Positions 1,149 to 38,619 of a stretch of DNA of 42,205 nt are shown here, in pieces. A program made the position numbers and the translations under genes. Every line of letters begins with the position of its first letter. Within the stretch, counting starts at the first letter, position 1. The notes beneath the pieces are model-generated. The model saw only the letters and a list, made by a program, of their open reading frames with translations, had not been told where the DNA came from and did not search any database. Source of the stretch: an uncultured Anaerolineae bacterium (lineage in GTDB: Bacteria; Chloroflexota; Anaerolineae; Anaerolineales; Villigracilaceae); assembly GCA_903846015.1 (NCBI GenBank), contig CAIMZS010000248.1, forward strand, positions 1 to 42,205, in the 5' to 3' direction.

Positions 1149-1529
1149 TTATTCAAAACGTTTTTCAGTACAGTCCCAACCGCTGAAATCCCACTCCGAG
1201 AGCAGTACGCGCAGGTCAGCCTTGTTGCTGACCTGGAACTTGCTGTGCACACTGCGTGTGTGCGTGCGCACTGTCTCCACCGACAGGTTCAGGCGCGCGG
1301 CCATCTGTGGGTTGGTGAACCCCAGGCAGGTCAACGCTGCCACCTGCTGTTCACGCGGGGAAAGCGCCAGCCAGCGATTCCACAACTCGCCGCGTATAGG
1401 GCGCTGCTGCTGCCCGGCAAGCGAATTCAAGGCCGTGCGCAGCGAATCGTCAAGGACAATTTTCTGCGCTTTCGGCGCGCGGCGCAGGCCCAGGCGTTGA
1501 AGCAGGTAATCGAGCAGATACATAACCAC
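1149..1529 (-). CDS. LuxR-family DNA-binding transcriptional regulator (126 aa)
   Basis: The C-terminal half (about residues 56-108) is a LuxR/GerE-type helix-turn-helix. It has the LSPREQQV entry motif, the FTNPQMAARLNLS helix pair and the recognition helix VETVRTHTRSVHSKF, followed by a final helix. The N-terminal 50 residues do not resemble a receiver or ligand-binding domain, so this is a stand-alone or truncated regulator. The start is GTG at 1527-1529, or the in-frame ATG at 1521-1523. A good sigma70-like promoter lies 19 bases upstream (1548-1576), so the gene is probably transcribed alone. It is flanked by the beta-propeller gene and the repeat array; its targets cannot be read from the sequence. 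Confidence 0.85.
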   Translation of the reverse strand: MVMYLLDYLLQRLGLRRAPKAQKIVLDDSLRTALNSLAGQQQRPIRGELWNRWLALSPREQQVAALTCLGFTNPQMAARLNLSVETVRTHTRSVHSKFQVSNKADLRVLLSEWDFSGWDCTEKRFE

Positions 1530-1591: not shown

Positions 1592-2884
1592 TCAGGATAT
1601 TCGCAGTATTGAGTCTTCGTTTTTCGGAGATATCAAATAGCCGTGGTGAAAACCCAGGCGCGGGTCATCCATCGCCCCCATTGATGGAACGTATTCGTGC
1701 AATTCAGGCATTTTAACGCGCAGTTTCACAGTGGCATCCGGATAATTGTACATTGTGATGTGATTCAGACCGCGGTTGGCAGTAAAAAGCAGGGATTGGT
1801 CACGTGAAAGTTGGCAGCCGTAGACTGAATCCAGCAGTGAGAAGCGACTGGCGCGCAGTGCGCCGAAGAAGTGGCGGGTACTGGTGAACAAACTGCCGCG
1901 CGCAAAGGAATCATAGACCTGTGTGGCGATTTCACGCGGGTGTTCCAGGGTGGTGCGCAGATCGGGGCGTTCATCGATCACGCGGAAATTGGCAAAGTTC
2001 TTCAGATCAATGCAAATGATCGATTGGCTGGCGCCGTTGCAAAAGATCAGTTCGCTGTCAGAGATGGTCACATCCGAATTAATGTGCGCGGGGGTTTCGC
2101 GGCTGGTGGCCCAATGGCGCAGCACCTGTTTGTTCTCAGCGTCAATCTCAAAGGCGTATTCTTTCAAGAATGCGATCGCCCATTCGTGGTAGTCGATATT
2201 CTCTTGCGGCATGACGCGGAACGAGACCGCATAGAAACGGTCCTCCGTTGGATGCGTCGTCAGGTGCCAGCAAGTGGTGGGCAGCTCCATGCGGGTGGCT
2301 TCGCCGGTTGCCATATCCCAAATACCGACTTCCTTGGCTTCTCCGTCGCGCCCAAAGTGTGGGTTATCCATCGAGCCGTAGCAGATATACTTGCGGCTCC
2401 TGGTCAGTTTCATGGCGTGCGGTAGCTTTACCTTGTGCGGCCCCAGGCGTTCGCCTTTGCCCAGGTTGTTGACGCTGAATTTGTAAAAATAATCGCCAAT
2501 GGCGGTGAGAAATTCTTCATTGTTTAGCCAGATCAGGTGGGTGCTGCCGCGGATCGAGGTATCGTTGACTTCGAAGCGCAGCGTGGAAATGCGGTCCAGC
2601 TCTTCCAGGTTGTGCGTATCGTACAGCAGCAGATGCTGCCCGGCGTTACCGAGGAAGCCATAGGTGCCAGCCGGGTTTACATTAACGGCGTGTCCACCCG
2701 CCATGCCCTGATAATACTTGATCTTGTAGGCGTAAGAATTGTCAACAGGGTTGTATAGAAACAGGCACACACCGGCCATGCCTTCCAGGCCGTTGATTCC
2801 ATTTCCATCCAGGGCAATGTGAAACGAATAGGGATATTCTTGCATTTCATGCCAACTTTTCCGGCCCCGTGCGCTGCTCAACAT
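1592..2884 (-). CDS. Beta-propeller-like protein of unknown function (up to 430 aa)
   Basis: The protein is a long run of short beta-strand segments with recurrent propeller-like turns, for example YGFLGNAGQHLLLYDTHNLEE, KEVGIWDMATGEATRM and LLFTANRGLNHITMYNYPD. This suggests a YVTN/WD40-type or selenium-binding-protein-like seven-bladed propeller. No signal peptide is visible, so it should be cytosolic. Two starts are possible: ATG at 2884 or ATG at 2845 (MQEYPYSFHIA), the second giving 417 residues; neither has a strong ribosome-binding site. The family was judged from strand periodicity, and I could not identify a catalytic motif. The gene is monocistronic or followed by the LuxR gene, which has its own promoter in between. 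Confidence 0.65.
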   Translation of the reverse strand: MLSSARGRKSWHEMQEYPYSFHIALDGNGINGLEGMAGVCLFLYNPVDNSYAYKIKYYQGMAGGHAVNVNPAGTYGFLGNAGQHLLLYDTHNLEELDRISTLRFEVNDTSIRGSTHLIWLNNEEFLTAIGDYFYKFSVNNLGKGERLGPHKVKLPHAMKLTRSRKYICYGSMDNPHFGRDGEAKEVGIWDMATGEATRMELPTTCWHLTTHPTEDRFYAVSFRVMPQENIDYHEWAIAFLKEYAFEIDAENKQVLRHWATSRETPAHINSDVTISDSELIFCNGASQSIICIDLKNFANFRVIDERPDLRTTLEHPREIATQVYDSFARGSLFTSTRHFFGALRASRFSLLDSVYGCQLSRDQSLLFTANRGLNHITMYNYPDATVKLRVKMPELHEYVPSMGAMDDPRLGFHHGYLISPKNEDSILRIS

Positions 2885-2981: not shown

Positions 2982-3010
2982 TTGTATTGAAGTGAGTATA
3001 TGTGTATAAT
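2982..3010 (+). promoter_or_regulatory. Sigma70-like promoter for the 3.1-8.5 kb gene cluster
   Basis: TTGTAT (2982-2987), a 17-base spacer and a consensus TATAAT (3005-3010) form a good promoter in the AT-rich gap 2885-3128. It points at the five-gene cluster that begins at 3129, leaving a leader of roughly 110 bases. Apart from this promoter I see no gene in the gap. Confidence 0.65.
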
Positions 3011-3128: not shown

Positions 3129-3641
3129 ATGGCCGATTTGGATATCCATTATGATCCTCTGACGATTAACAACAACCCCGCGACGGTGACCATTCAAGGT
3201 TTGGACAACGTCAAAGATACCATTACGCTGGCGACACCCCAACCTTTGAAATCTGAAACCAAATCGGATATCAACTTTCCGTCCCCCATCGTCACTCATA
3301 CCACGGCAGAATTGGCCATTACCCAGCCGATTCGCACCGAATCCAAAGCCGAACTGGATATCAAGCCGGTGGAGTTTGACCAGTGTTTGACTATTCGGAT
3401 CGCGCCGCTGCCACCAACCTGCGTCCGTCTGCCTTATCAGCAGCACTTCGGGGTGACTTTGTTTGGCGTGGAGCTGCTCGGTTTCAACCTGGAAGGCGAG
3501 TCACATGTGGTCGTCAGCGATCTGCCGCGCTCGCCCCAGGTGGATTGGGGCGGCGAACAGTCTGCCCGGCACAGCGCAGCCCCGCAAGCGCCCTCCATTC
3601 GGAACGTGGATGGCGGTCTGCGCATCCGTCTTGGTAAATAG
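3129..3641 (+). CDS. First gene of the Ig-like cluster: unknown protein with internal repeat (170 aa)
   Basis: I do not recognise this family. The N-terminal half contains an imperfect repeat: QPLKSETKSDINFPSP (about residues 53-68) and QPIRTESKAELDIKPV (about 80-95), each a beta-prone Lys/Ser/Glu-rich strand. It is followed by a conserved-looking core, CVRLPYQQHFGVTLFGVELLG (about residues 112-131), which ends in a short hydrophobic beta stretch. There is no signal peptide. I chose ATG 3129 (MADLDIHYD); ATG 3117 is also possible, and the GGAAAGG ribosome site at 3110-3116 lies upstream of both. It is the first gene after the promoter at 2982-3010 and is followed after nine bases by the next gene, so it belongs to the same operon. 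Confidence 0.7.
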   Translation: MADLDIHYDPLTINNNPATVTIQGLDNVKDTITLATPQPLKSETKSDINFPSPIVTHTTAELAITQPIRTESKAELDIKPVEFDQCLTIRIAPLPPTCVRLPYQQHFGVTLFGVELLGFNLEGESHVVVSDLPRSPQVDWGGEQSARHSAAPQAPSIRNVDGGLRIRLGK

Positions 3642-3650
3642 GAGCTTGTG

Positions 3651-4490
3651 ATGAATACATCCGGCGGATCTCTCGAAGCTAGTATGCCTGGGTACGATAT
3701 TCTTGATCTATCCGCGGATGCGCCCATCATCCTGGTCGGCGAAGGGAAATCTCTACGGGGTGAATTGCGTTTGCGCAACCCGGGGCCAGATAGAATACAA
3801 CTGAGTGCCGCCAACCTGCATTTGCAGGTTTCGCACTCGTCTCAGCCCATTCCCTATGCCCAGGTTTCGCTGCCCGCCGGGCTGCCTCCCGGCCAGAGCC
3901 AGCGGGTGAAAATGTCGCTGGACTTTGACCCACTGACGCCGCCAGGCGAATATAAGGGCGAGCTGGATATGGCGGGTCATACCCGGGCAGTGATTGTTTA
4001 TGTCGCCGAGTTGATTCGCCTGGCTATCTCGCCACAGGTGCTGGTGATTGACCAGCCCGCCGGATCGATAGTGTCCAAAAATATCATCCTGACCAATGAG
4101 GGCAACGTCCCGCTCACATTTGTTCCGATCGGGAAGGTGGCGCTTGGCGAGGAGTTGATGCTGCGCCGCAGCCTGAGCGTCACGGTTGCAGCCGCAGGTG
4201 AAAAAGAAGCCAATCCGCTTGGCAAGATCTTTGCCGATCTTGTCCATCAGGAATCCAAAGCGGTGCTGGGCGAAGCTGGTACTCTTATGGTGGTCAATGC
4301 CAGCCTGGTGCTGCAGCCGGGTGAATCACGCCAGTTGGGCCTTGAAATTCATCTGCCGGATAACCTTTCCATGAATTCCCGTTATATTGGCAGGGTTCCG
4401 CTGTATACCAGTGACCTTGAATTTGTTGTAGTGCCGCATTCAGTCCGGCCCGCTAAATCGCCGAAGCCAGAAAAAGAGTCTTCGGATTAA
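3651..4490 (+). CDS. Cytosolic tandem Ig-like beta-sandwich protein (279 aa)
   Basis: The protein appears to be built of two Ig-like beta-sandwich domains. The first (about residues 15-120) begins with the SADAPIILVGEGKSLRGELRLRN pattern and ends in PGEYKGELDMAGHTRAVIVYVAEL. The second (about 125-265) begins LAISPQVLVIDQPAGSI and contains the LTNEGNVPL turn typical of CARDB/NEW3-like domains. No signal peptide is present, which is unusual because most such domains are extracellular. The C-terminal tail is Lys/Ser/Pro/Glu-rich and probably disordered. The start is ATG 3651 with GGAGC five bases upstream; GTG 3648 is an alternative. It follows the 3129 gene by nine bases. After its stop the cluster is interrupted by a 169-base gap carrying two copies of the dispersed repeat. 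Confidence 0.75.
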   Translation: MNTSGGSLEASMPGYDILDLSADAPIILVGEGKSLRGELRLRNPGPDRIQLSAANLHLQVSHSSQPIPYAQVSLPAGLPPGQSQRVKMSLDFDPLTPPGEYKGELDMAGHTRAVIVYVAELIRLAISPQVLVIDQPAGSIVSKNIILTNEGNVPLTFVPIGKVALGEELMLRRSLSVTVAAAGEKEANPLGKIFADLVHQESKAVLGEAGTLMVVNASLVLQPGESRQLGLEIHLPDNLSMNSRYIGRVPLYTSDLEFVVVPHSVRPAKSPKPEKESSD

Positions 4491-4543
4491 TCATGATTAT
4501 TTGGATAGCCCCGCAAGCCACGAGGCACCACGGAAATTGCCGT

Positions 4544-4593
4544 GGCCGTGCTAGAACCAGCACTATCGGCCGTGCTGGAACCGGCACTATCGC
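4544..4593 (+). repeat. Two tandem copies of the dispersed repeat inside the Ig-like cluster
   Basis: Two 24-base units (4544-4567 and 4568-4591) match the units at 992-1039 with single changes (ACCAGCAC in the first, GCTGGAAC in the second). They occupy the 169-base gap between the genes ending at 4490 and starting at 4660. Nothing else was recognised in that gap except the AGGAG ribosome site before 4660. Confidence 0.85.
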
Positions 4594-4659
4594 AAGAATG
4601 GTAAGCAATAGTAACTTTTGCGCAGTGATCTGTGAGCAGTTTTCAATTCAGGAGCAGCC

Positions 4660-5421
4660 ATGCAAGAACAACGTAATTCGATGCCAGCTTGGAACGATTA
4701 TTTCACCCAACAGCGCTGTGATACTTGTGGACGGACACTTGCGCCAGCGGGTATTGGTTTAGGACAGAGCGCTTCCAACCAGACCACCACCCAATATATG
4801 GATAGTTGGACGCGCGCCTGGGGTGGCATGTACGATGCCTGGACACAGGCAGTCACTTCCAGTTGGGCGCCATTTTATGCGCCGCAGCAGCAGTCCATGA
4901 ACCCTGTGGGTAAAACCCACGCTAAGCGCCACGAGGAACACTGTGAAGAATGTGGACGCTCAGAAGGCGCATGTGGGCATGACTGTGAGTGTAAATGCTG
5001 CGTTGGCGATGCGGATTTACTGGTGCATGCCCGGGTGGGCGAGCGCCGGGTGGTGCCGCTGGTGATCGAAAACGATTCGCACCGAGAAAAACAGATCGAA
5101 TTGGAGCTGAGTGATTGGACACGCAGCGCCCACAACGGGGCAACCGATATTCAGATCACCGGAAAACTGCTTGATCCGATCGCCTTCACCCTGGCTGGCT
5201 GTTCTGAGCAGAAAGTGACCCTGATGGTGCAAATCCTTGGACAGGCTGTCGGTACAGAAGATGCTGCCAACCGGGGTATTGGAGATGTGGATGGCTGCCA
5301 GGTCTATTACGCTGATTTGCGCGTAAAAGGCTGTGATATTCGCCCGGTGCGCATCGCCCTGGCGCTGCTCTCGCGTGATTGCTCGCCCCTGACCATCGAA
5401 TGCCGCTGTGACTGCTGCTAA
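4660..5421 (+). CDS. Cys-rich protein with phasin-like helix and Ig-like domain (253 aa)
   Basis: Residues about 15-25 hold a CDTC pair. Residues about 45-75 form an amphipathic, Trp/Met-rich helix (MDSWTRAWGGMYDAWTQAV) reminiscent of phasin or PhaE-like helices. Residues about 95-115 are a dense cysteine block (CEECGRSEGACGHDCECKCC), and the C-terminus ends in ECRCDCC. Between the last two (about 117-240) lies an Ig-like domain whose strands (VGERRVVPLVIEN, DPIAFTLAG, YYADLRVKGC) align by eye with those of the next gene (IGQAALRSFVLEN, KPERFSLAP, YRATVTVHGY). The cysteines could bind metal or cross-link. There is no signal peptide. The start is supported by AGGAG six bases upstream. The stop is three bases before the next gene, so the two are coupled. 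Confidence 0.75.
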   Translation: MQEQRNSMPAWNDYFTQQRCDTCGRTLAPAGIGLGQSASNQTTTQYMDSWTRAWGGMYDAWTQAVTSSWAPFYAPQQQSMNPVGKTHAKRHEEHCEECGRSEGACGHDCECKCCVGDADLLVHARVGERRVVPLVIENDSHREKQIELELSDWTRSAHNGATDIQITGKLLDPIAFTLAGCSEQKVTLMVQILGQAVGTEDAANRGIGDVDGCQVYYADLRVKGCDIRPVRIALALLSRDCSPLTIECRCDCC

Positions 5422-5424
5422 CCT

Positions 5425-6180
5425 ATGAGCGATAAAAACGATACTTCCGGGAAAGATTTTAACCGCCAGGCTCAGGATTTTGTCACCCGTTCGATTGCGG
5501 AGCAGGTGAAAGCGGCCCAGCGCGCCTACGATCTGGCGGCGCGTTTTAGCCGTGGAGAAATTTCTAGCCAGGCCATGATCGATGAATATGTCCGTTTTAC
5601 CAGTCAGGAAACCAGCCGGTATACCAGCGACCTGGCCATGCTGGGTTTAAATTATTACAAGGATTGGCTTGCGCTGAATCTGCGCTACAGCAACAGCTTT
5701 TTCGAGGCGGTGGGTGCCAAACGCGAAACCAGCGTATCTGAAGCCAGTGAGCCGGCCCGGCGGGTTGAGATCGAACTGCATGCCCCCATCGGCCAGGCTG
5801 CGCTGCGCTCGTTTGTGTTGGAAAATAAGCGCGGCGGCACAGCCGATATCTCATTTGTTGTTTCCGAGTTCACAAGCCTGGCCGGGACAATCCGGCTGCC
5901 GCTTGAGATAAAACCCGAAAGATTTAGCCTTGCTCCCGGCGAAGAATGCACCGTTTCGCTGCGTCTTCCACTGCCTGCCGGATCGGTTGTTAGTGGGCAG
6001 CGTTATCGCGCTACCGTCACAGTACATGGTTACCATGACCTGGAATTGGGATTGACTGTGTGGGCTGATGCGCCTGCTTCAGATATGGAGAAGAATTCAG
6101 CCATACCTGAAGCGGTCAAACCAGCCGGGAAAAAGAAAGTTACATCTCGCAAGGCAGGTAGTGAGGAAAAAGCTGAATGA
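5425..6180 (+). CDS. Phasin-like helical domain plus Ig-like domain (251 aa)
   Basis: Residues about 8-95 are predicted all-helical and amphipathic (AQDFVTRSIAEQVKAAQRAY, then MIDEYVRFTSQETSRYTSDLAMLGLNYYKDWL). This resembles phasin/PhaE-type segments that coat polyhydroxyalkanoate granules. Residues about 105-215 form an Ig-like beta-sandwich homologous by eye to the one in the preceding protein. The tail (about 220-251) is Lys-rich and disordered (GKKKVTSRKAG). No signal peptide is seen. It starts three bases after the upstream stop and overlaps the next gene by the four bases ATGA (6177-6180), a classical coupling overlap. The phasin comparison is inference from helix pattern; no PHA synthase is present in the window. 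Confidence 0.75.
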   Translation: MSDKNDTSGKDFNRQAQDFVTRSIAEQVKAAQRAYDLAARFSRGEISSQAMIDEYVRFTSQETSRYTSDLAMLGLNYYKDWLALNLRYSNSFFEAVGAKRETSVSEASEPARRVEIELHAPIGQAALRSFVLENKRGGTADISFVVSEFTSLAGTIRLPLEIKPERFSLAPGEECTVSLRLPLPAGSVVSGQRYRATVTVHGYHDLELGLTVWADAPASDMEKNSAIPEAVKPAGKKKVTSRKAGSEEKAE

Positions 6181-8489
6181 CGCCTGCCAGAACCGGCCTT
6201 CGGGTTCCTTCGCAGAAAAAAATCCAGGCGGTGATAGTCTCCAATCCGGTCGCAGACCGTTTCGGCTTGCTGGAAGCCGCTCTGACGCAGAGCGGTTTTT
6301 GGGCTGATCTGGCGAGGGCCAGGCGCAAGGCGAAACGGCGCCCGGATGAATTTCAAATTCTGATCAAGCCGGATATGGGCTTTTTTAAAAAGGGTTCCGC
6401 CACCGGTACAGATCCAATCTTGGTGGAGTACCTTGTTGATTTGCTGTACGGGCGCGGCTATACCAGCGTTGTGATCGGTGAAGGTCGCGACAGCTTTGAC
6501 CTGTGGCTGGAAAACCGCGATGTCCTTGTGCTGGCTGACCTGGTGGGATATCGCTTCACCACCGAATCAGGCAATTTCTATGATGTAGTCGACCTGGGCG
6601 AGGACCTGGTGGAAGTTCCTTTCCCCGCTGGGAGTGTTTTGCATGGCAGCAGCCTGGCGCGCGCCTGGGTGGATGCCAATTATCGCATTTGTTTCGCCAA
6701 GAACAAGACCGACGAAGAAAATTTTTATGCGCTTTGCCTGCATACCATCGCTGGAGCGCTGCCACTGCGTGATAAAGACTATCATTATCACAACCGATTG
6801 GCAATACAGGATGTGATCGGAGACCTGCTCTTGCAAACGCCAGTGCACTTTGCGCTGATCGATGCCTTTACAAGCAGCCACGGCAGCGCCGGTTCACGCC
6901 TGGAACGGGCCGTGGACACCCACACAATCATTGCCAGCAGCGATCCGCTTCTGGCGGATTGGGCCGGGGCAACCAAGATGGGGTTGGATCCATTTTCATC
7001 ATCCCTGAATGCAGCCGTTTTGCGTCGCGTAGGTCTTCCGCTCAATCATCAAATCAAAGGCGATCTGGCTCCGTATACCGGCTGGATCAACGTTCATCCG
7101 CTCATGGTCAAATCAGTGCAGAGCCGCAATGAATGGATGGAGATCAACCGTTTGACAAAACCCTGGTTGCAGCGTGTGGACCAGGAGCTGTTTCCCTTTA
7201 AGGAATTGATCGATGGACAGATCAACACCATCGCAATGCGCTACCTGGGCGATATCGATGACAATGCGTTGGCATGGTGGGGCACTGCCGGGTTGAATAC
7301 CTGGATCGGCGCGGCCCACGATGGTTTGCAAGCCTACCAGACTCTGTATGACAAGGGAAATTTGCGTTGGAAAGAAGCCTTGCTCAACCTGGATCTGGAT
7401 TCTTACAGCCTGGCCGATTACGAAGCGATCGCTGGATATCTTGAACCGTTGGCCGAACTAATCCTTCAGACTCCTGCTGACCCAAACGGCATGCGCTGGC
7501 GCTACCTGGACGGGTCGGTGCTGTTTGAATTCGTGCGTGAACTGGCAATCCCCTATGATGATTTCATTGCGCGCGTAGATATCAGTACAGCCATCCAATT
7601 GATGAACGATTATATCGGTGGGCGGGCAGTCCCTGTGGCTCGGGATCAATCTGGGCGCGTAACCCACCAGGCCGAACGTAATTTTTATCTGCCGCAGCCC
7701 AATTACGTTGTGCTTTACAACGGCAAAGTCATCGATGTGACCAAGATCGAACATATCCGCTATTCTGAACATGAACAGCAAATTTTTTGGAAAACGGTCA
7801 AGAGTGAGAATGCTTCGGCTGAGTTTGATGACGGGATTGTCACATTTACGCGCAGCGCAAATGGAGAGACACGCGTGAGCATCATGGGACGGCAGTTGTT
7901 CACCTTGCCCCTGTTCTTCCAGGTATTCAGCCTGGATGCCAATCCGCCGCTCAAAGGGTTTTTGACTCAACAGGCCTATAACACTTTCTTCAACCAGACG
8001 ATGGCGAATTTCGAGGCAAAATATGAAGGTCGCCAGGTGCGCATCGGGCGACCCTGGCATGATCAGGAGGGCCAGCCGGGGGTGGATGATGTGGAAAAGT
8101 GGCCGAGCGAACAGCTTGCCGCGCTGGTTGAAAAGGTCGGCGCTGCTGTTGGCCAAAATATGAGCAGCTCGGCAAATGTCTGGAGCTGGCAGGAACGGCC
8201 CACAGCCAGACCAGGCGGTATTCTTGATGATGAAGGTTTTGTGCACTTCCAGGGCAAACCTGCCAGTGATGAAATTGCCGCTCACACAGCTGCCCCGGTG
8301 TTCTTCAGGAACGGTAATTCTGATGAAGGTCCAGGTGGGCAGTCGGGCAGTGCTTCTGGGAAACCCTTTGGGTATGCCGGATCTCCGCCCATCCCGCCTC
8401 AGTTTGGTGTGATCCTGAGTGAGTTTTTAACTGGGCTGACATCGGCCATGCAGAAGGATTTCGGTCTTAAACCCGATTCAGAATCATGA
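6177..8489 (+). CDS. DUF362-domain protein with SRPBCC-like C-terminal region (770 aa)
   Basis: Residues about 15-300 match the DUF362 pattern: ILIKPDMGF, then TDPILVEYLVDLLYGRGYTSVVIGEG, the VDANYRICFAKNKTD segment, and the diagnostic HGSAGSR with DTHTIIASSDPLLADWAGATKMGLDP. No FeS cysteine motif is present, unlike some DUF362 ferredoxin fusions. A region from about 460 to 620 has the strand-helix order of a helix-grip SRPBCC domain (ISTAIQLMNDYIGG, then NYVVLYNGKVIDVTKIEHIRYS). The last 130 residues are Gly/Ser/Pro-rich. The protein is much longer than most DUF362 proteins (about 300-450 residues). The first codons (TGCCAGAACCGGC, 6185-6197) match 12 of 13 repeat bases and may be a decayed repeat copy. 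It overlaps the upstream gene by ATGA and closes the cluster. The biochemical role of DUF362 is unknown. Confidence 0.8.
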   Translation: MTPARTGLRVPSQKKIQAVIVSNPVADRFGLLEAALTQSGFWADLARARRKAKRRPDEFQILIKPDMGFFKKGSATGTDPILVEYLVDLLYGRGYTSVVIGEGRDSFDLWLENRDVLVLADLVGYRFTTESGNFYDVVDLGEDLVEVPFPAGSVLHGSSLARAWVDANYRICFAKNKTDEENFYALCLHTIAGALPLRDKDYHYHNRLAIQDVIGDLLLQTPVHFALIDAFTSSHGSAGSRLERAVDTHTIIASSDPLLADWAGATKMGLDPFSSSLNAAVLRRVGLPLNHQIKGDLAPYTGWINVHPLMVKSVQSRNEWMEINRLTKPWLQRVDQELFPFKELIDGQINTIAMRYLGDIDDNALAWWGTAGLNTWIGAAHDGLQAYQTLYDKGNLRWKEALLNLDLDSYSLADYEAIAGYLEPLAELILQTPADPNGMRWRYLDGSVLFEFVRELAIPYDDFIARVDISTAIQLMNDYIGGRAVPVARDQSGRVTHQAERNFYLPQPNYVVLYNGKVIDVTKIEHIRYSEHEQQIFWKTVKSENASAEFDDGIVTFTRSANGETRVSIMGRQLFTLPLFFQVFSLDANPPLKGFLTQQAYNTFFNQTMANFEAKYEGRQVRIGRPWHDQEGQPGVDDVEKWPSEQLAALVEKVGAAVGQNMSSSANVWSWQERPTARPGGILDDEGFVHFQGKPASDEIAAHTAAPVFFRNGNSDEGPGGQSGSASGKPFGYAGSPPIPPQFGVILSEFLTGLTSAMQKDFGLKPDSES

Positions 8490-8614: not shown

Positions 8615-9661
8615 ATGGGCTTGAAGGTATTGGTAACAGGTGCAAATGGATTGATCGGTGCGAACCTGGTTCGCGAGCTTTTGGCACAGGGTTGCGAGGT
8701 GCGCGCGTTTGTGCGGCGCACCAGTGACCTGACCAGCCTGGCCGCGCTGCCGGTCGAGATCGTTTACGGGGATGTGCTTCAAGCTGAAACGCTGGTTGAG
8801 GCCGCCCAAGGCTGCGAGCTCGTCTTCCATACCGCGGCTATTTTTGCTTATTGGGGTGTCAGCGCCAGCGATCTCGAGACCACCGCGGTACAGGGCACGC
8901 TCAATGTATTGGAAGCATGCCATTCGGCAAATGTACGCAGGGTGGTATTGACTTCATCATCGGTGATATTTGGGTCAAGCTCCCGTCCTGTGCTGCGCGA
9001 CGAAACTTCAGAATTGAGAGATGAAGATGCCCCGGCGTATGTCCCGACCAAGCTGGCCCAGGATCAGGCGGCTTTCCGGCGCGCTGCCCAACTCGGTCTG
9101 GAACTTGTGGCCGTTTGTCCCACCATTGTGGTCGGAGCGCATGATGTTCATCTCAGCCCGAGTAATTCGATCATCGTAACCTATCTCAGTGATCCGTTCC
9201 GGCTGACCTTTCCAGGAGGCTGCAACATCGTTTCGGCAAGTGACGTGGCCAGTGGGCATATTCTGGCAGCGCGCCACGGGAAAAACGGCCAGAAATATCT
9301 GCTTGGCTCCGAGAACCTTGAGTGGTCCGCCATTCATCGCGCCATCTCGGATTTGTGTGGTGTTCCTGGACCATTTTATACCACCAATCACACTGGTTCT
9401 TATCTGGCTGCGACCGCCGCCGAGTTGAACGCCTGGTTTACACGCAAGCCGCCGCTGACCACGCGCGCGCAGGCGGGTATGGTTGGGCGCTATTATTGGT
9501 ATCGCCACGAGCGCGCCGCTGCGCTGGGTTTTTCACCTATGCCTGCTCGCCAGGCGCTGGCCGAGGCCGTCTCCTGGCTTGCCGCCAGCCGGCATGTGTC
9601 GCAGCAGTTGCGGGTGACGCTACAGCTTTCACGGGAAGTCTATCTGGCCCGCCAGAAGTAA
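8615..9661 (+). CDS. NAD(P)-dependent epimerase/dehydratase, HpnA/dihydroflavonol-reductase type (348 aa)
   Basis: This is an extended short-chain dehydrogenase. The Rossmann signature TGANGLIG lies at residues 8-15 (glycines 9, 12 and 15). The acidic GDV turn is at about 52-54, the TSSSVIFG strand at about 113-120, and the catalytic YxxxK is Y142/K146 (AYVPTK). The C-terminal domain is typical of the dihydroflavonol 4-reductase/HpnA branch that acts on sugar or steroid-like substrates; the exact substrate cannot be read. Length is normal for the family. The start is ATG 8615 with only a weak GGGA ribosome site. The 125-base gap before it holds no convincing gene. The SRPBCC gene follows 31 bases downstream and may be cotranscribed. 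Confidence 0.88.
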   Translation: MGLKVLVTGANGLIGANLVRELLAQGCEVRAFVRRTSDLTSLAALPVEIVYGDVLQAETLVEAAQGCELVFHTAAIFAYWGVSASDLETTAVQGTLNVLEACHSANVRRVVLTSSSVIFGSSSRPVLRDETSELRDEDAPAYVPTKLAQDQAAFRRAAQLGLELVAVCPTIVVGAHDVHLSPSNSIIVTYLSDPFRLTFPGGCNIVSASDVASGHILAARHGKNGQKYLLGSENLEWSAIHRAISDLCGVPGPFYTTNHTGSYLAATAAELNAWFTRKPPLTTRAQAGMVGRYYWYRHERAAALGFSPMPARQALAEAVSWLAASRHVSQQLRVTLQLSREVYLARQK

Positions 9662-9692
9662 CCCGAACTAATTTGGAAGGATGATCTGCGTT

Positions 9693-10262
9693 ATGAAGCC
9701 ATTCAAAAGTGTGGCAATTGTCAAACACCCCATCGAGCAGGTCTGGTTGACCGTGCTCAACCGCTTACCCGACCTGGTGCCTTTTATGGAAGATATGGAA
9801 AAGATTAGCCAGCTTAAGCGCGAAGATCTTCCATATGGGGTTACCCGGTTGGATAATCTTTGGCAGGCCAAACCGATGCTGCGACTTAGTCCCGGTTCTA
9901 GCACGGCCACGGGGCAAGGATTGCAGCTCAAACCGGAGATGTTTGCCTGGATCGATCGCGCCGAGTGGCGCCCGCAAGACCATGCCTGTCACTGGCAGAT
10001 TGAATCACGCTTTATGCCTGATGCGCTGAAGTGTTGGGGGGTGACCAGCTATGAACCAGCCATCGGCGGGCGCGGGACGCGCGTGACATTCGAAGGAAAG
10101 CTCGGAATGAGTACCGGCACTCTTCTGCCAGGGTTGGGGTTTCTGGATGGGTCGTTGATGAGCGGCTTTGAAACCCTGGCCAGCTCTCTGATTCCCAAAA
10201 ATATGCGCAAAATGACCGAGGCGGTGGGGATTTTCCTGGATCAGTACCCCGCGCGTGATTAA
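9693..10262 (+). CDS. SRPBCC (START/polyketide-cyclase-like) family protein (189 aa)
   Basis: The N-terminal strand-helix MKPFKSVAIVKHPIEQVWLTVLNR and the later strands (CHWQIESRFMPDALKCWGVTSYEPA, TRVTFEGKLGM) fit the helix-grip SRPBCC fold. The long C-terminal helix around SGFETLASSLIPKNMRKMTEAVG is also typical. Such proteins bind lipids or other hydrophobic ligands; the ligand here is unknown. Residues about 66-75 (RLSPGSSTATG) are encoded by an in-frame copy of the dispersed repeat (9881-9912), in a loop between strands. The start is taken as ATG 9693; ATG 9681, which follows GGAAGG directly, would add four residues. The gene is convergent with 10288-11475, 25 bases away. Confidence 0.8.
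   Translation: MKPFKSVAIVKHPIEQVWLTVLNRLPDLVPFMEDMEKISQLKREDLPYGVTRLDNLWQAKPMLRLSPGSSTATGQGLQLKPEMFAWIDRAEWRPQDHACHWQIESRFMPDALKCWGVTSYEPAIGGRGTRVTFEGKLGMSTGTLLPGLGFLDGSLMSGFETLASSLIPKNMRKMTEAVGIFLDQYPARD
9881..9912 (-). repeat. Dispersed repeat inserted in frame in the SRPBCC gene
   Basis: The reverse complement reads GGCCGTGCTAGAACCGG and continues with a diverged GACTAAGTCGC end. It is read through in the SRPBCC gene as the loop LSPGSSTATG without a frameshift or stop. Confidence 0.8.
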
Positions 10263-10287: not shown

Positions 10288-11475
10288 TTATTCAGCCATC
10301 TCTTCCAGCCGCTCTGCCGCGCGCGATAGACCTTTTTGACGGGCCTGGGCCAGGATGGCGTCAACGGGCAGCACGGGGATGCTCAGGCGCTGGCATAGAC
10401 TGGCAAACTTGCGGTTGATCTCAACCGGCGATGGCCGGGTGTTTGCGCCCTGCAGCCATTCCAGCAGCTGCTCAACAGCAGCCTGGTTACGAACGTTGAT
10501 ATCATCGCACATCACCCAGATGCACCAATCATAGATCAGTGTATATCGGCCAACGCTGCGCATGGTCAGGCGGCCGGCTTCGTCATCATCCGCGTCGGGT
10601 AGGAAAATCCGTCCATCCACCATCACCTGCGCGCCCCACGGTCCGTTCTCATTCAAATACCAGGCCTCCTGCTTCAATCCGCCTTGCTCAAAGTATCTGC
10701 GCACAGACTCGGAGAGGCTGTCTGTTTTAGCTTTCAGGGCCCGGTAAACGATCGGGTCGCGGTTGACAGCATCTTCCAGGACTGTATCGTGCAGTCCGCG
10801 CACCTGGCTGAAGACCAGCAGCTTGAGCGGGCTGGCTGGTTTGTTCTCACGCACTTCGATAAAATACGCCGGCATATAAGCCGGTTCGGGGTTGAGCAGC
10901 TGCGTTGAGCTGATTTCATCCGGCAGGTTAAAGCTCTCATGCGGGTTTTTCAGCATTTGCTCGAGCGCGTCGTCATTCCAGGGTTGGTCGAAGTGAAACA
11001 AGGCCTGAAAGGGCGTTTTTTCAGCGCTCAGCGTTTCCAGGATGGGGATCTTGTAATGCTCCGGGCTGAGCGGGTTGCTGCCCAGGGCTTCGAAATACAG
11101 TTCGGTGCTGGTATTTTGATCTTCGTAGCGCACCCGGTCGCGCACTGAAGCGATTCCCAACTCCGTCAGGGAAAGGTTGTCATAATTGCCTTTAATATGC
11201 CCGATCCCTCGCAAAAAGTCCACCAGGCGTTCCACAAAAACCGGTTCCAGCCCATAGAAAGAAGCCAGCTCAACCAGTGAACTGAAACCCGCGTCAAACA
11301 AACCGCGCTCCATATACCATTCCAGTTCATCAAACTCCGTGGCAATACGCTGCCGCCCATCCACGCGCACACGCCAGAGCGGGTACAGCACGCGAAACAG
11401 GCGCACCGGGATGTAGCCCATTTCCTGGACCTGGTCGAGGGCTTTGTAATGGCTGTACAGCAGGTATTTACTCAC
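10288..11475 (-). CDS. Unknown 395-aa protein coupled to the UPF1-like helicase
   Basis: I do not recognise the family. A winged-helix-like stretch is visible at about residues 40-105 (FDELEWYMERGL, then LVELASFYGLEPVFVERLVDFLRGIGHIKG and LSLTELG). Later parts are mixed alpha/beta (LLVFSQVRGLHDTVLEDAV, WYLNENGPWGAQVMVDGRIFLPD, VGRYTLIYDWCIWVMCDD), followed by helices. There is no signal peptide or membrane segment. The best start is GTG at 11473-11475: it overlaps the helicase stop in GTGAGTAA and has GAAGG five bases upstream. ATG codons at 11520 and 11550 would force a 50-80 base overlap. The tight overlap implies translation from the same mRNA and probably a joint function with the helicase. 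Confidence 0.75.
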   Translation of the reverse strand: MSKYLLYSHYKALDQVQEMGYIPVRLFRVLYPLWRVRVDGRQRIATEFDELEWYMERGLFDAGFSSLVELASFYGLEPVFVERLVDFLRGIGHIKGNYDNLSLTELGIASVRDRVRYEDQNTSTELYFEALGSNPLSPEHYKIPILETLSAEKTPFQALFHFDQPWNDDALEQMLKNPHESFNLPDEISSTQLLNPEPAYMPAYFIEVRENKPASPLKLLVFSQVRGLHDTVLEDAVNRDPIVYRALKAKTDSLSESVRRYFEQGGLKQEAWYLNENGPWGAQVMVDGRIFLPDADDDEAGRLTMRSVGRYTLIYDWCIWVMCDDINVRNQAAVEQLLEWLQGANTRPSPVEINRKFASLCQRLSIPVLPVDAILAQARQKGLSRAAERLEEMAE

Positions 11476-14400
11476 GGGGGCCTTCAACAGGTTGGAGCTG
11501 GGCTGGTAATTCGTTGGCATAAAGATAGCCTTTTGGTGTGGTTTTAACACTTGTCAGCAGGGCTTTTACCAGGCGCGCAAAATCCTGGTCGGCACTCTCG
11601 GATAACGTGACCGAATCACCCACCAATACCAATTGCCGGCGGGCGCGGGTCAGGCTGACGTTCAGGCGGCGCAGTTCAGCCAGGAAGCCGATGCGGCCTT
11701 CGGTGTTGCTGCGCGTGAAACCGAAGATGATCACATCCTGTTCCCGGCCCTGGAAGGAATCGACCGTAGCCACCCGGCTGTTCAATTCGTCTTCACTCAA
11801 TTTAGTCTGGCGGCGGCGCAGTTCACGGCGAATTTTCTCAGCCTGTTTTTTATAAGGTACGATCACCCCGGCCTCACTGCCTTTGGACTGGTAAGCCATC
11901 AGCAGGTCACTGATCAGGCCTGCCTCAAGCAAGTTGAAATAGCCCTGACCATCGTCGGAACGCTGCTCAAAATGGCGAAATTCCCGCATGGTATCTACAA
12001 AGACCATTGGGCTGCTGCCGAAGAATGGATCCAGGTGGGCCGCTGCTCCGTCCCCGGTGTGGTAGCTGCCGCCATAAAACTGCGCGGAGATAAAGTCTGC
12101 GATCTGGCGCGGCATGCGATACTGAGTATCCAGCATCACCCTGTTACTATTGGGGGTGTTTGGGCGTTTGATCATGCGTTCAAACAGGCTCTTCTCCAGC
12201 CACTCGCCCAGCTCCTGGTTCTCGGGTTCATTCTCGCGGATCTTCACTGTGATTTCAGCTTCCACCACGGGTGGAAGTTGAAGATGATCGCCTACCAGTA
12301 CAGCGCGTCTGGCTCGCACTAACGGCACGAGCAGGTCCATCACCTGGATCTGCCCGGCTTCATCGGCGATTACCAGGTCAAATTCCAGATCTTCAAAACG
12401 TACGTCGGTGGCGATGCCGATACAGGTGGCGCCAATTACATCCGCCGAGCGGATCAAGGCCGGGTAGAGCGCCTGTTGGCGGGATTGGAGCAGGTCGCGC
12501 CATTCGGCCAGCAGCGTCCTGCGGCGCATCATCAATTCATACCATCCGCGCCACTCCCACAATGCGCTTTTAAGCCCATCCATCGATGGGAAGGAATTCT
12601 CGAAAGGGGCTGTTCCATGCCCCGTGGCCGTGGCCGTGCTGGAACCGGCACTGTCGCTGGAACCGGCACTGTCGCCTGAACCGGGACGCAGAGTCTCGGT
12701 CAGATGGATGAGTTCGGACTGTGCCTGGTCAATCCCGGCGCGTACCTCCGTCAGGACAGTCTCGGCTTGCATAACCTCGCGCTTGAACTGGAGGGCTTGC
12801 TCGCCGGCAGTGACAAAATGTCGGTAGGCCTCCCATATCTGCCGGATGGTTTCCCTGGATTTGCGCATATCTCGGAGAGCTTCGTTATATTGAGCGGAGG
12901 CTTGCTGCCAGTCATGCGATAACTGGTTCGCCCACAGGATAAAGAATTCGCCAATCAACGGCGCCCGGCTCAACTGTCCAAAGGGCAGGCCAGGTTGGAA
13001 GCCTTCCAGTCTTCGGCGCAGACTCTCGGCATGGCGTGCTATCTGATTCAAGCGGATGCCCAGCGTGTGAAAATGGTTCTTTTGACGGTCCAGGCTGTGT
13101 TCCACGCGCGTAAACGAGGCGCGCTGCCAGTTGGTCAGGTCGGCAAGTTTGTGGTCCAGCCCGGTCTGGGCCTGGCGCCAATCTACCAGGAGTTGTTCCA
13201 GCCGTTCAATCACTTGCTGGACCTCAGGCCACAATTCCTGGGTACTCTCCAGGTTGGCCTGCACCGGTTGAATATTGTCGAGAATATTCTGCTGCATGGC
13301 GCCAGCCAGGTTGTCGATCAGCATCGGCCGCACATCGGGGGCTACTGCTTCTTCCCTGCCAATCCGCACCGCCAGGACATTTTTCAATCCAGCCAGCACG
13401 TTGTCAACGGCCTTGTTATTTTTGGATGTCACCAGCACTTTCCTGCCAAGTGCCGCCTGGCGGGCAACAATCTCTCGAATGGTATCGGTCTTGCCGGTGC
13501 CGGGTGGGCCCAGGGTCAGCAGCAGGTCCGGCACAAGCAGGGCGCGCTCGATCATTGTTCTTTGAGCGGAATTGGGTTTCCCTTTTGAGTGTGAGACAGT
13601 GGCAGCTGCGAATGTTTCGAATTGGTTATCAACGATCAATGGCAGCAGTCGCTGGTTGAGAGCAGCGCCATTGCGCAGCGCCCGCACCGCTTCGTGTTGA
13701 ATGGTGTACTGTCGGGTGGATATTTTCGGGGCCAGCCACTCTACCCGCTGCAGCAGTTTCAGATCGACCGCCTGGTTAAAGCGCAGCAACAGGGATGTGC
13801 CCACGGCTTCCATCACTACGCCATCATACCCCGGGCTGGCATCCGTGGCTGTACCAGTGCCTGTCCGCAGGTACTCGCCCGCTCTGATCTCGGCCAGAAC
13901 CGCCAATTGAAAGCGATAGGTCTTGCCTGGGAAGCGCTCCATTGCCACCGCTTCGACTGATTTAACCGGGATGCGTTCTTGTTGGGCGGCCTTCTCCAAT
14001 TCCACCTGGCAGGCCAGATCGATCAATGTATCCACATTTGCCAGGAAGGCCAGGTGCTCCGGCGTCAGACCGGCGCCCCCTGGGCCGCCGTGGGTTGGAA
14101 GCAGCACGCCTGTCCCAGGTTGTCGCGCTTGCTTCCAACAAGCAAGAATCGCTTCGATGCCGGTCTGTGCCTGGGTGGCACTTGTTCCATCGGATGCCAG
14201 CTGGTTGATATTCGCCAGCTCTTCAAATGCGCCCCAGGTGTGGGGTGATACCCTGACTGCGCCGCGCGCGATCTGGTTGTGTGTGCGCAGGGAAAGCGGC
14301 GCAAGGCGCAAAGCGAAATAGGCATCCTGCTGCGAGGTAGTCCCGGTTCCAGCACGGGGCTGTGTCAGCCCACAGACCAGTTCATAACGTGGTGTGCAAA

Positions 14401-14602
14401 AAGAGATGCGTAAATTATCGGGTTGTTTATCATCCACCAGAGTCAGCAGGCCATTTTCGGAATATACCAAAAAATCTGCTTCTACTTCTGAGGATGTCTG
14501 TGGCAGCGGAATATCCGGGTAATCCTCGGCAGCCTTTGTCAGGCAGCGTTCCGGCAGGACAACGAAAAGGGGGTGCGGCAGCTGACAGTGTACAAACCCC
14601 AT
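11468..14602 (-). CDS. UPF1/Dna2-like superfamily 1 helicase with coiled-coil insert (1044 aa)
   Basis: All SF1 motifs are present: Walker A GPPGTGKT (365-372), Ia VTSKNNKAVDNVL, Walker B VIADEAG (744-750), motif III GDHLQLPP (771-778), motif IV QYRM (827-830), motif V VDSFQGRE (947-954) and motif VI RRLNVSLTRAR (978-988). This is the UPF1/Dna2/SMUBP2 (SF1B) type, which unwinds nucleic acid 5' to 3'. Residues 1-330 form a beta-rich N-terminal region of unknown type. About 430-730 is a long helical insert, mostly coiled coil, between motifs Ia and II. Two dispersed-repeat copies are read in frame: at about residues 82-88 (PRAGTGT) and in the insert at 640-663 as a Gly/Ser/Ala-rich linker. The start ATG overlaps the upstream TAA stop by one base (TAATG). 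The gene is cotranscribed with the 75-aa membrane protein and the 395-aa protein. Confidence 0.93.
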   Translation of the reverse strand: MGFVHCQLPHPLFVVLPERCLTKAAEDYPDIPLPQTSSEVEADFLVYSENGLLTLVDDKQPDNLRISFCTPRYELVCGLTQPRAGTGTTSQQDAYFALRLAPLSLRTHNQIARGAVRVSPHTWGAFEELANINQLASDGTSATQAQTGIEAILACWKQARQPGTGVLLPTHGGPGGAGLTPEHLAFLANVDTLIDLACQVELEKAAQQERIPVKSVEAVAMERFPGKTYRFQLAVLAEIRAGEYLRTGTGTATDASPGYDGVVMEAVGTSLLLRFNQAVDLKLLQRVEWLAPKISTRQYTIQHEAVRALRNGAALNQRLLPLIVDNQFETFAAATVSHSKGKPNSAQRTMIERALLVPDLLLTLGPPGTGKTDTIREIVARQAALGRKVLVTSKNNKAVDNVLAGLKNVLAVRIGREEAVAPDVRPMLIDNLAGAMQQNILDNIQPVQANLESTQELWPEVQQVIERLEQLLVDWRQAQTGLDHKLADLTNWQRASFTRVEHSLDRQKNHFHTLGIRLNQIARHAESLRRRLEGFQPGLPFGQLSRAPLIGEFFILWANQLSHDWQQASAQYNEALRDMRKSRETIRQIWEAYRHFVTAGEQALQFKREVMQAETVLTEVRAGIDQAQSELIHLTETLRPGSGDSAGSSDSAGSSTATATGHGTAPFENSFPSMDGLKSALWEWRGWYELMMRRRTLLAEWRDLLQSRQQALYPALIRSADVIGATCIGIATDVRFEDLEFDLVIADEAGQIQVMDLLVPLVRARRAVLVGDHLQLPPVVEAEITVKIRENEPENQELGEWLEKSLFERMIKRPNTPNSNRVMLDTQYRMPRQIADFISAQFYGGSYHTGDGAAAHLDPFFGSSPMVFVDTMREFRHFEQRSDDGQGYFNLLEAGLISDLLMAYQSKGSEAGVIVPYKKQAEKIRRELRRRQTKLSEDELNSRVATVDSFQGREQDVIIFGFTRSNTEGRIGFLAELRRLNVSLTRARRQLVLVGDSVTLSESADQDFARLVKALLTSVKTTPKGYLYANELPAQLQPVEGPRE
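12626..12687 (+). repeat. Multi-copy dispersed repeat inside the helicase coding region
   Basis: A 24-base-type unit (from 12632) is followed by an 18-base-type unit (GCTGGAACCGGCACTGTC) and a degenerate third (CCTGAACCGGGAC). Read from the minus strand the array encodes GDSAGSSDSAGSSTATATG in the helicase insert. TAG is replaced by TGG in these units. Confidence 0.85.
14338..14360 (-). repeat. Partial dispersed repeat in the helicase N-terminal region
   Basis: The reverse complement reads CCCCGTGCTGGAACCGGGACTA, one incomplete unit. It is translated in frame as PRAGTGT in the N-terminal region of the helicase. Confidence 0.65.
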
Positions 14603-14829
14603 TATAGTATCCAGCCTGAAACCAGCACAAGCAGGGCCAGGCAGGCGCAGATCAATAGCAGCAGAATGGCGCTGTTGCGCGCCACCTTCCGGCGGGCAGT
14701 TTCCACTTGTGCTGGCGTTATCGGCAGCCTGGAAGGGGGCTGCAAACGGATTGGCTCCCGAGCCAGCTCTGGCGGGGGTGCAACTCCATCGTTATAAAGG
14801 TCGGAGAGATCAGTTTCCACGGGAAACAT
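14602..14829 (-). CDS. Small tail-anchored membrane protein (75 aa)
   Basis: The product begins MFPVETDLSDLYNDG, continues with a Pro-rich cytosolic part (APPPELAREPIRLQPPSRLPITPAQ) and a basic helix (VETARRKVARNS), and ends in one strongly hydrophobic segment (AILLLLICACLALLVLVSGWIL). It therefore looks like a C-terminally anchored single-pass membrane protein. Its TAA stop overlaps the helicase ATG by one base, which supports its reality and coupling. I chose ATG 14829; ATG 14907 would add 26 residues. It may place the helicase at the membrane, but that is inference. Confidence 0.7.
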   Translation of the reverse strand: MFPVETDLSDLYNDGVAPPPELAREPIRLQPPSRLPITPAQVETARRKVARNSAILLLLICACLALLVLVSGWIL

Positions 14830-14947
14830 CCTGTCAGCTGTCCAGGTGTGATTTTCCTGGCAAATCGCGCGGGTGATGATCTGCATTATACCAATCATCT
14901 GAACCATGATTAGTGTCTCATGTCTGAACCGCAGATTTTCGCCTCGT

Positions 14948-14991
14948 GGCCGTGCTGGAACCGGCACTATCGCTAGAACCGGCACTATCGC
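14948..14991 (+). repeat. Tandem dispersed repeat, intergenic
   Basis: A 24-base-type unit (GGCCGTGCTGGAACCGGCAC plus TATC) is followed directly by an 18-base unit (GCTAGAACCGGCACTATC), which defines the short variant of the repeat. It lies in the 212-base gap between the genes starting at 14829 and ending at 15042; no other feature was seen in that gap. Confidence 0.85.
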
Positions 14992-15041
14992 GGGACGTAT
15001 TGGGCAATGGAAAATTTTGCAGGTTGGCAGCTTTTTCAGGT

Positions 15042-38508: not shown

Positions 38509-38619
38509 ATGCATAGTTTACAGGCCGCTGGTTACCTGGAATTCAAAGGGAATAACCCATCCTACCGCAAACAAAAGCGGGATACTCATCTCGTATTTCA
38601 CAGGTATTTAATCATATGA
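38509..38619 (+). CDS. Possible small ORF overlapping the ycf45-like gene start (36 aa)
   Basis: ATG 38509 starts a 36-codon frame (MHSLQAAGYLEFKG, then basic residues) whose TGA stop overlaps the next gene's ATG in ATGA (38616-38619), as in coupled genes. GGGAA lies nine bases upstream, and a plus-strand TATAAT sits at 38427-38432. The following gene has only a weak ribosome site, so a coupled leader peptide would make sense. There is no recognisable family, and chance is possible. Confidence 0.25.
   Translation: MHSLQAAGYLEFKGNNPSYRKQKRDTHLVFHRYLII

What the first reader, a model, noticed from the sequence alone, without database searches (positions are those of the whole stretch)
3129..8489. 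Undescribed five-gene cytosolic Ig-like/phasin-like/DUF362 cluster
One promoter (2982-3010) leads into five same-strand genes with gaps of nine bases or fewer, or ATGA overlaps, apart from one repeat-filled gap. Three products have paralogous Ig-like beta-sandwich domains but no signal peptides, which is unusual for such domains. Two of these also carry amphipathic helices like phasins, and one is strongly cysteine-rich. The last protein couples DUF362 to an SRPBCC-like tail and is about twice the normal DUF362 size. Together they suggest a cytosolic particle, granule coat or assembly with a DUF362/SRPBCC protein as client. The function is inference; the domain relations are by eye.
Basis: partly seen in the sequence, partly recalled or inferred. 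Interest (0 to 1): 0.8.

Follow-up and report, generated by a model that had tools for sequence, protein, structure and literature searches.

The report
Cytosolic lipid-handling scaffold and enzyme module
An eight-gene set that recurs, whole or in part, in unrelated bacteria encodes an oxidoreductase-family protein, a predicted lipid-binding protein and predicted scaffold proteins, which likely assemble inside the cell around an oily substrate.

Summary
The five genes are real, and the finding is bigger than stated. They belong to an eight-gene module: a propeller protein (1592-2884, minus strand), g1-g5, an SDR (8615-9661) and a conserved 193-aa protein (9681-10262). The order g1-g2-g3-g4-g5-SDR-193 aa recurs in an Opitutaceae genome; parts recur in Nitrospirota, beta- and gammaproteobacteria, Verrucomicrobia and Chloroflexi. 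Profiles built only from other phyla recover g1, g2 and g4 best of 310 window frames; g3 comes second to its paralog g4.

In models, g5 is a lactate-racemase (LarA)-fold domain fused to a full START-type lipid-binding domain, with two conserved short motifs in a disordered tail. g4 is a helical hairpin plus an ASH/MSP/PapD-like Ig sandwich. g3 is its paralog; g2 possibly.

The polyhydroxyalkanoate (PHA) reading is not supported: the host has no PHA synthase match, as have 5 of 8 other genomes. The module is patchy: g5 is in 0 of 100 relatives, g4 in 0 of 399 phylum members.

Best guess: a cytosolic lipid-handling assembly in which hairpin/ASH proteins scaffold the LarA-START protein, SDR and propeller. 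Gene set and linkage are shown, folds predicted, substrate and function inferred. No description was found in the open-access papers searched.

The parts
1592..2884 (-). Beta-propeller protein, weakly WD40-like, 430 aa; the most conserved member of the module
   Evidence: 62-75 % identity to copies in 7 of 8 loci (the eighth, L005, is a contig cut off inside g5); 852 relatives at E<=1e-3; mean column identity 71 % over 36 rows; Beta-prop_THOC3 in 15 of 36 members, best E 1.2e-5, but no family for the window's own copy.
3129..3641 (+). g1, 170 aa, no known family; C-terminal FGVE...GES motif shared with relatives
   Evidence: Held-out profile of three other loci finds it at E 7.3e-7, next frame 0.23; no Pfam or NCBIfam match.
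3648..4490 (+). g2, 280 aa, probably Ig-like scaffold protein
   Evidence: Held-out profile E 2.8e-30; weak Ig-type Pfam matches (Fn3-like, NPCBM_assoc, Cep192_D3) and choice-of-anchor D at 0.027.
4544..4591 (+). Two 24-base direct repeats in the 169-base gap before g3
4660..5421 (+). g3, 253 aa, cysteine-rich, Ig-like, paralog of g4
   Evidence: hhalign to g4 98.3 %, E 2e-14; held-out g3 profile E 9.2e-4, with g4 ranking above it at 3.3e-8; 17 Cys; relatives match fn3_5, HYDIN and Cep192 Ig models at 1e-3 to 3e-3.
5425..6180 (+). g4, 251 aa: helical hairpin, ASH/MSP/PapD-like sandwich, disordered basic tail
   Evidence: Held-out profile E 1.1e-32; model; fold matches; 13 homologs, own included.
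5443..5715 (+). g4 residues 7-97, two long helices (hairpin)
   Evidence: Model, pLDDT about 72-89 in most ten-residue blocks, pTM 0.45; this part was not covered by the fold comparison.
5758..6069 (+). g4 residues 112-215, ASH/PapD/MSP-type sandwich
6177..8489 (+). g5, 770 aa: DUF362/LarA-fold domain fused to a START domain, with a disordered tail
   Evidence: DUF362 68.4 bits; model and fold matches; 344 relatives at E<=1e-3 among the 7995 candidates scored.
6240..7187 (+). g5 residues 22-337, lactate/malate racemase (LarA) fold
7392..8036 (+). g5 residues 406-620, START-type lipid-binding fold
8226..8249 (+). g5 tail motif DxxGFxHF (residues 684-691)
   Evidence: Exact in 31 of 35 aligned rows; present in L008 and L009; absent from the other seven module proteins; column counts.
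8397..8459 (+). g5 C-terminal helix (residues 741-761), conserved F..(D)L..A..KD.G
   Evidence: A757 33 of 34, K760 33 of 34, D761 34 of 34 rows; helix in the model at low confidence.
8615..9661 (+). Extended SDR, HpnA/3beta-HSD-like, 348 aa
   Evidence: Epimerase E 4.5e-31; HpnA 250.6 bits, under its cut-off of 367.65; 49-63 % identity in 6 of 8 loci.
9681..10262 (+). Conserved 193-aa protein, SRPBCC-like by eye only
   Evidence: 24-48 % identity in 6 of 8 loci; alignment with invariant GGRGTR; no Pfam match and no relation to the START domain of g5 by hhalign.

Best explanation
The five genes belong to an eight-gene module, found whole or in part in unrelated bacteria, that likely builds a cytosolic assembly for handling an oily, lipid-like substrate. 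In this reading g3 and g4 would lie on a lipid surface through their helical hairpins and display ASH/MSP-type Ig domains that gather partner proteins; g1 and g2 would be further scaffold. g5 would hold the substrate in its START pocket and act on it, or present it, with its LarA-fold domain. The SDR would carry out an NAD(P)-dependent oxidation or reduction of it, and the 193-aa protein would be a second carrier. The disordered tail of g5 would dock through its two conserved short motifs, most likely onto the propeller protein, because the motifs persist in the two isolates that lack g4 relatives. Shown: the gene set, its order and its linkage. Predicted by models: the folds of g4 and g5. Inferred: the lipid substrate, the assembly, the docking and the chemistry.
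For: Order g1-g2-g3-g4-g5-SDR-193 aa in L004 (Opitutaceae), with ATGA overlaps of g2/g3 and g3/g4. g1-g4 also in a row in L005 (Nitrospirota) and L010 (gamma endosymbiont), and g3-g4 in L006 (betaproteobacterium). Held-out profiles recover g1, g2 and g4 as best frames and g3 second to g4. Of the 120 contig lengths listed for g5 relatives, 21 recur among the 120 listed for propeller relatives, against 0.55 by chance and at most 3 in 2000 trials (one is the window's own and one, 2775 bases, is too short for both genes; both lists are the best 120 of longer ones). The g4 list shares 6 of its 13 lengths with g5 and 2 with the propeller, own included. START and LarA folds of g5; that DUF362 and LarA share a Pfam clan is stated in PMC11770544 (passages). 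Sandwich and hairpin of g4. Tail motifs. Short ORFs that look helical sit just upstream of g5 in L003, L006 and L007. PAP2 phosphatase genes, a family that includes lipid phosphatases, lie beside the module in L004 and L006.
Against: No ligand or activity is known. The host genome has no match for PHA synthase, WS/DGAT or squalene-hopene cyclase, so no known lipid body or hopanoid route explains it. Two isolates (G484, G485) carry propeller, g5, SDR and a 193-aa relative without any g4 relative, and G483 has no g4 relative either, so the scaffold is not obligatory. Hairpin confidence is moderate, and the hydrophobic moment of g4 (0.60) is no higher than that of the SDR (0.59), so surface binding is not demonstrated. 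The sandwich of g4 matches periplasmic pilus chaperones and glycosidase domains about as well as ASH/MSP domains, so the fold alone tells neither place nor role. The 193-aa protein has no confirmed fold. g1 and g3 of L004, and g3 of the other loci, were assigned by position and motif.
Confidence: 0.4

Rival explanations
1. g3 and g4 are phasin-type coat proteins of polyhydroxyalkanoate granules, and the module is an accessory of PHA storage.
For: g4 has an N-terminal helical hairpin and a basic tail. A 111-aa ORF stands in the place of g4 in L003 and matches Phasin_2 at E 0.0046. G482, G484 and G485 have PhaC.
Against: Phasin_2 stays under its cut-off (17.6 against 24.9 bits) and shows in 1 of 10 g4 members at 0.26. 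PhaC_N is absent from 6 of 9 genomes including the host; no class III synthase passes the cut-off in 9 (the only control that rang, Caulobacter, did not pass it either). Two of the three PhaC-bearing genomes, G484 and G485, are among those without a g4 relative.
Confidence: 0.07
2. The core is a biosynthetic or catabolic pathway for a secondary metabolite, and g1-g4 are only optional stabilising or localising proteins; the LarA-fold domain is a true racemase or epimerase acting on a hydrophobic 2-hydroxy acid.
For: Propeller, g5, SDR and a 193-aa relative occur without g4 in two isolates. The LarA fold of g5 is clear. The SDR is of a kind that works on small hydrophobic molecules.
Against: LarC, needed for the nickel-pincer cofactor of LarA enzymes (established knowledge), is absent from 7 of 9 genomes including both isolates and the host. 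Real LarA homologs are in 3 of 9, including the host, and g5 does not align with them by profile. The other usual genes of a biosynthetic cluster were not seen next to it.
Confidence: 0.25
3. The module is an undescribed defence or other mobile system, which would explain its patchy spread and the helicase-like gene beside it.
For: g5 in 0 of 100 relatives and g4 in 0 of 399 phylum members; the flank is kept without the module in two same-genus genomes; a 41-residue match of the propeller to the PADLOC candidate model PDC-S05, E 2.6e-4.
Against: No other PADLOC match among the 8 proteins; no propeller match on plasmids or viral contigs; the parts predict lipid binding and redox chemistry, not nucleic-acid or effector action.
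Confidence: 0.08
4. The conserved neighbourhood reflects the core genes only, and the Ig-like genes of the window are unrelated newcomers that drifted next to it.
For: g1-g4 are the fastest-evolving part: 18-28 % identity to the other phyla's copies for g2 and g4.
Against: The same four kinds of gene adjoin g5 or the propeller in L004, L005 and L010, and g3-g4 in L006; held-out profiles recover them.
Confidence: 0.05

Closest known systems
VAP (MSP domain) and START-domain lipid-transfer proteins of eukaryotic membrane contact sites
   Same: MSP/ASH-type Ig domains together with a START domain, and conserved short motifs in a disordered tail.
   Different: No TM anchor in g4; START is fused to a LarA-fold domain; the tail motifs persist without the ASH proteins; nothing shows common descent beyond the fold, and the fold is shared with many other proteins.
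PHA granules with phasins
   Same: Small cytosolic proteins with long helices and a basic tail, in a cluster with metabolic enzymes.
   Different: No PHA synthase match in the host; Phasin_2 under cut-off; Ig domains attached.
LarA superfamily (lactate/malate racemases; DUF2088) and DUF362
   Same: g5 matches DUF362 and its N-terminal domain has the LarA fold.
   Different: Fused to START and a motif-bearing tail; LarC missing from 7 of 9 genomes; no detectable sequence alignment with LarA.
HpnA / 3beta-HSD / dihydroflavonol reductase-type extended SDRs
   Same: Full-length match of the SDR.
   Different: Under the HpnA cut-off (250.6 against 367.65 bits); no hopene cyclase match in the host.

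Membership tests
DUF362 (PF04015) | Match above the gathering score | tested here: met
   g5: 68.4 bits against 24, residues 61-265.
LarA superfamily (nickel-pincer racemases) | LarA fold | tested here: met
LarA superfamily (nickel-pincer racemases) | Cofactor maturation gene larC in the genome | tested here: not met
   PF01969 in 2 of 9 genomes (G479, G486), not in the host or the two isolates. The host does have a LarA homolog without a LarC match, so its assembly may be incomplete here.
LarA superfamily (nickel-pincer racemases) | Catalytic His and cofactor-binding Lys | tested here: inconclusive
   hhalign to three LarA homologs gives no usable alignment (probability 0.2 %).
START / SRPBCC (g5 residues 406-620) | Helix-grip fold with long C-terminal helix | tested here: met
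START / SRPBCC (193-aa protein) | Family or fold match | tested here: inconclusive
   No Pfam match; best PDB profile match E 0.04; no relation to g5 by hhalign; not folded.
Phasin / PHA granule protein | Phasin family match above cut-off | tested here: not met
   Phasin_2 at 0.26 in 1 of 10 g4 members; 17.6 bits against 24.9 for the L003 ORF.
Phasin / PHA granule protein | PHA synthase in the same genome | tested here: not met
   PhaC_N in 3 of 9 genomes, not the host; TIGR01836 over cut-off in 0 of 9, weaker matches in 4 of 9, none in the host.
Phasin / PHA granule protein | Amphipathic helical part | tested here: inconclusive
   Helices 7-42 and 48-97 in the g4 model; hydrophobic moment 0.60, but the SDR reaches 0.59.
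ASH / MSP / PapD-like domain (g4) | PapD-like sandwich | tested here: met
VAP-type contact-site protein | C-terminal TM anchor | tested here: not met
   Highest 19-residue hydropathy in g4 is 1.18.
VAP-type contact-site protein | Binding of short FFAT-like motifs | not testable with these tools
   Needs a complex model or a binding assay.
Known anti-phage defence systems | PADLOC component models | tested here: not met
   1 of 8 proteins has a match at E<=0.01, one 41-residue stretch at E 2.6e-4.
HpnA (hopanoid-associated epimerase) | Score above the NCBIfam cut-off | tested here: not met
   250.6 bits against 367.65.

The most novel reading that the evidence does not exclude
Bacteria of several phyla share a soluble counterpart of the eukaryotic VAP-START lipid-contact machinery: MSP/ASH domains carried on surface-binding helical hairpins recruit a START-fused, LarA-fold lipid enzyme through short linear motifs in its tail, making a lipid-surface organelle or metabolon unlike PHA granules, lipid droplets or microcompartments.
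Probability: 0.15. Interest if true: 0.9.

Novelty: categorically new. Interest (0 to 1): 0.68.

Why it matters
If right, several unrelated bacterial lineages share an undescribed eight-gene module that puts ASH/MSP-type scaffolding, best known from the eukaryotic cytosol, beside a START lipid carrier fused to a lactate-racemase fold. That would be a new way for bacteria to organise lipid chemistry in the cytosol, and it would give the unassigned DUF362 domain a testable cellular setting. Two records that look like cultured isolates (Mitsuaria sp. WAJ17, Pelomonas sp. BJYL3) carry the four-gene core, so gene removal and lipidomics could be done.

Tried and rejected
PHA storage: not supported for the host. 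Wax-ester/TAG storage: WS/DGAT in 3 of 9 genomes (G482, G484, G485), not the host (no control genome rang). Hopanoids: squalene-hopene cyclase matches in 6 of 9 genomes, 4 over the cut-off, only G479 and G481 strong, none in the host. Nickel-pincer racemase. Known defence.

Plasmid carriage: no propeller match in the plasmid collection. Viral contigs: 13 pattern matches, none a relative. The first look for g5 in genome contigs with a single protein confirmed none of 15 pattern matches; the profile confirmed 8 of 23.

Contaminant contig: considered, because the host MAG has 5.85 % contamination and the window is a whole contig. The right flank (10288-15291) is kept in order in two same-genus genomes (G008, G010) at 57-74 % identity for its two main proteins, and no module protein matched the stretches read, so the contig fits the genus and the module is a variable neighbour. 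What was read: 21.7 kb of the 57.7 kb contig of G008 and the whole 9.0 kb contig of G010. Whether g5 is elsewhere in them was covered, which found none.

Horizontal transfer: a tree of 36 propeller proteins puts the three rows labelled Chloroflexota in two places and the two acidobacterial rows in two, but keeps Verrucomicrobia together and betaproteobacteria weakly so. Transfer is likely but not shown. L005, L006, L007 and L010 are short contigs (5-10 kb), so missing genes there say little.

The histidines of the propeller first suggested a metal enzyme; the weak Pfam matches are to WD40-type propellers, and no PDB sequence match was found. DUF5119, DUF1523 and other Pfam matches under cut-off were disregarded as chance.

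Papers: DUF362 with phasin, 0 papers; five-term search, listing only; DUF362, 9 papers, of which passages of PMC11770544 and PMC10892978 were seen; PF04015, lipid droplet/START/phasin, epimerase/SRPBCC and ASH/MSP, listings only. The module is not described in what was seen; subscription papers and preprints were not searched.

Full report
WHAT IS THERE. The five ORFs are present at the stated place. Spacing is tight: 6 bases g1-g2, 3 bases g3-g4, an ATGA overlap of g4-g5. One 169-base gap lies before g3 and holds two 24-base repeats. A hydropathy scan finds no signal-like or membrane segment. The promoter claim is not supported: the scan finds only a minus-strand match near 2982-3010.

THE MODULE IS LARGER. 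A profile of 35 long DUF362 proteins found eight loci in named genomes: Verrucomicrobia, Opitutaceae, Nitrospirota, betaproteobacterium UBA6910, Chloroflexi, Pelomonas, Mitsuaria and a gammaproteobacterial endosymbiont of Lamellibrachia. A translated search of these with the window's proteins shows the propeller (1592-2884) in 7 of 8, the SDR (8615-9661) in 6 of 8 and the 193-aa protein (9681-10262) in 6 of 8; the contigs of L005 and L007 end within g5. L004 has g1-g2-g3-g4-g5-SDR-193 aa in the window's order, with the propeller convergent at the end. L005 and L010 have g1-g2-g3-g4 in a row on the strand opposite g5. L006 has g3-g4 opposite and a 101-aa ORF overlapping the start of g5. L003 has a 111-aa phasin-like ORF before g5, L007 a 140-aa ORF that looks helical. 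L008 and L009 have only propeller, g5, SDR and a weak 193-aa relative. Some assignments rest on position and motif: tblastn with the window's proteins did not find g1 or g3 in L004 nor g3 anywhere; the g4 profile does match g3 in the genomes of L005 and L010 (E 2.9e-10 and 7.8e-9). A whole-genome search with that profile found matches in 5 of these 8 genomes and none in those of L007, L008 and L009.

IS IT MORE THAN CHANCE. Profiles built without the window, from the other phyla's copies only (three for g1 and g2, four for g3 and g4), were run on all 310 stop-to-stop frames of the window. They find g1 at E 7.3e-7, g2 at 2.8e-30 and g4 at 1.1e-32 as best frames. The g3 profile puts g4 first (3.3e-8) and g3 second (9.2e-4), so g3 is the most diverged. 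Frames outside g1-g4 are at 0.23 or worse. In the large protein set, the 120 contig lengths listed for g5 relatives and the 120 for propeller relatives share 21 values, against 0.55 on average and 3 at most in 2000 jittered trials; g4 shares 6 of its 13 with g5 and 2 with the propeller. Named relatives include Chloroflexi bacterium TSY, Blastocatellia, Chthoniobacterales, Bryobacteraceae and Nitrospirota.

PATCHY IN ITS OWN KIN. Among 100 other relatives none has g5 at E 1e-20; among 399 other genomes drawn from the phylum none has g4 at E 1e-3; in the family of Mitsuaria 2 of 200 have the propeller, both already known. The flank right of the module is kept in G008 and G010 of the same genus, without module genes in the stretches read.

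HOW IT MAY WORK. START domains carry hydrophobic ligands (established knowledge of the family); the SDR resembles enzymes on lipids, sterols and flavonoids; PAP2-family phosphatases sit beside 2 of the 8 other loci (in which ten chosen proteins were scanned). I therefore infer a lipid-like substrate, a scaffold by g1-g4 on a lipid surface, and docking of g5 by its tail. None of these three steps is shown. The absence of PHA synthase, WS/DGAT and hopene cyclase matches from the host argues against the familiar lipid bodies; the absence of LarC from 7 of 9 genomes argues against a nickel-pincer racemase, though the host has a separate LarA homolog without LarC, so an assembly gap is possible there.

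VERDICT. I found no such module described in the searches made (open-access papers only), and the nearest known systems each miss a defining feature that was tested, hence categorically new, with function still inferred.

Noticed in passing
window 20203-20760 and 20808-21524: Two adjacent proteins with the N_BRCA1_IG domain (E 8e-13 and 4.6e-8) follow a lysine-2,3-aminomutase-like radical SAM gene.
   Followed up: no
window 10288-14602: A 420-aa protein of no family and a 1044-aa protein that looks like a helicase by eye form a block kept in only 2 of 10 same-genus genomes (G008, G010), at 57-74 % identity.
   Followed up: partly
L004 214-831 and L006 7424-8011: PAP2-family phosphatases lie directly beside the module in two unrelated phyla.
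   Followed up: partly
L003 9599-9934, L006 1685-1990, L007 3197-3619: Short ORFs of 111, 101 and 140 aa without Ig domain, helical by eye, sit just upstream of g5 where the window has g4.
   Followed up: partly
L042 1483-2751 (host contig C433): The host has a full-length LarA homolog but no LarC match.
   Followed up: no
window 1149-1529: A 126-aa LuxR-type protein (GerE E 1.1e-12) lies next to the propeller gene; only the DNA-binding end is matched.
   Followed up: no
window 38616-40289: A 558-aa protein combines AAA-type ATPase matches, a 79-residue phosphotyrosine phosphatase model and an R3H domain.
   Followed up: no
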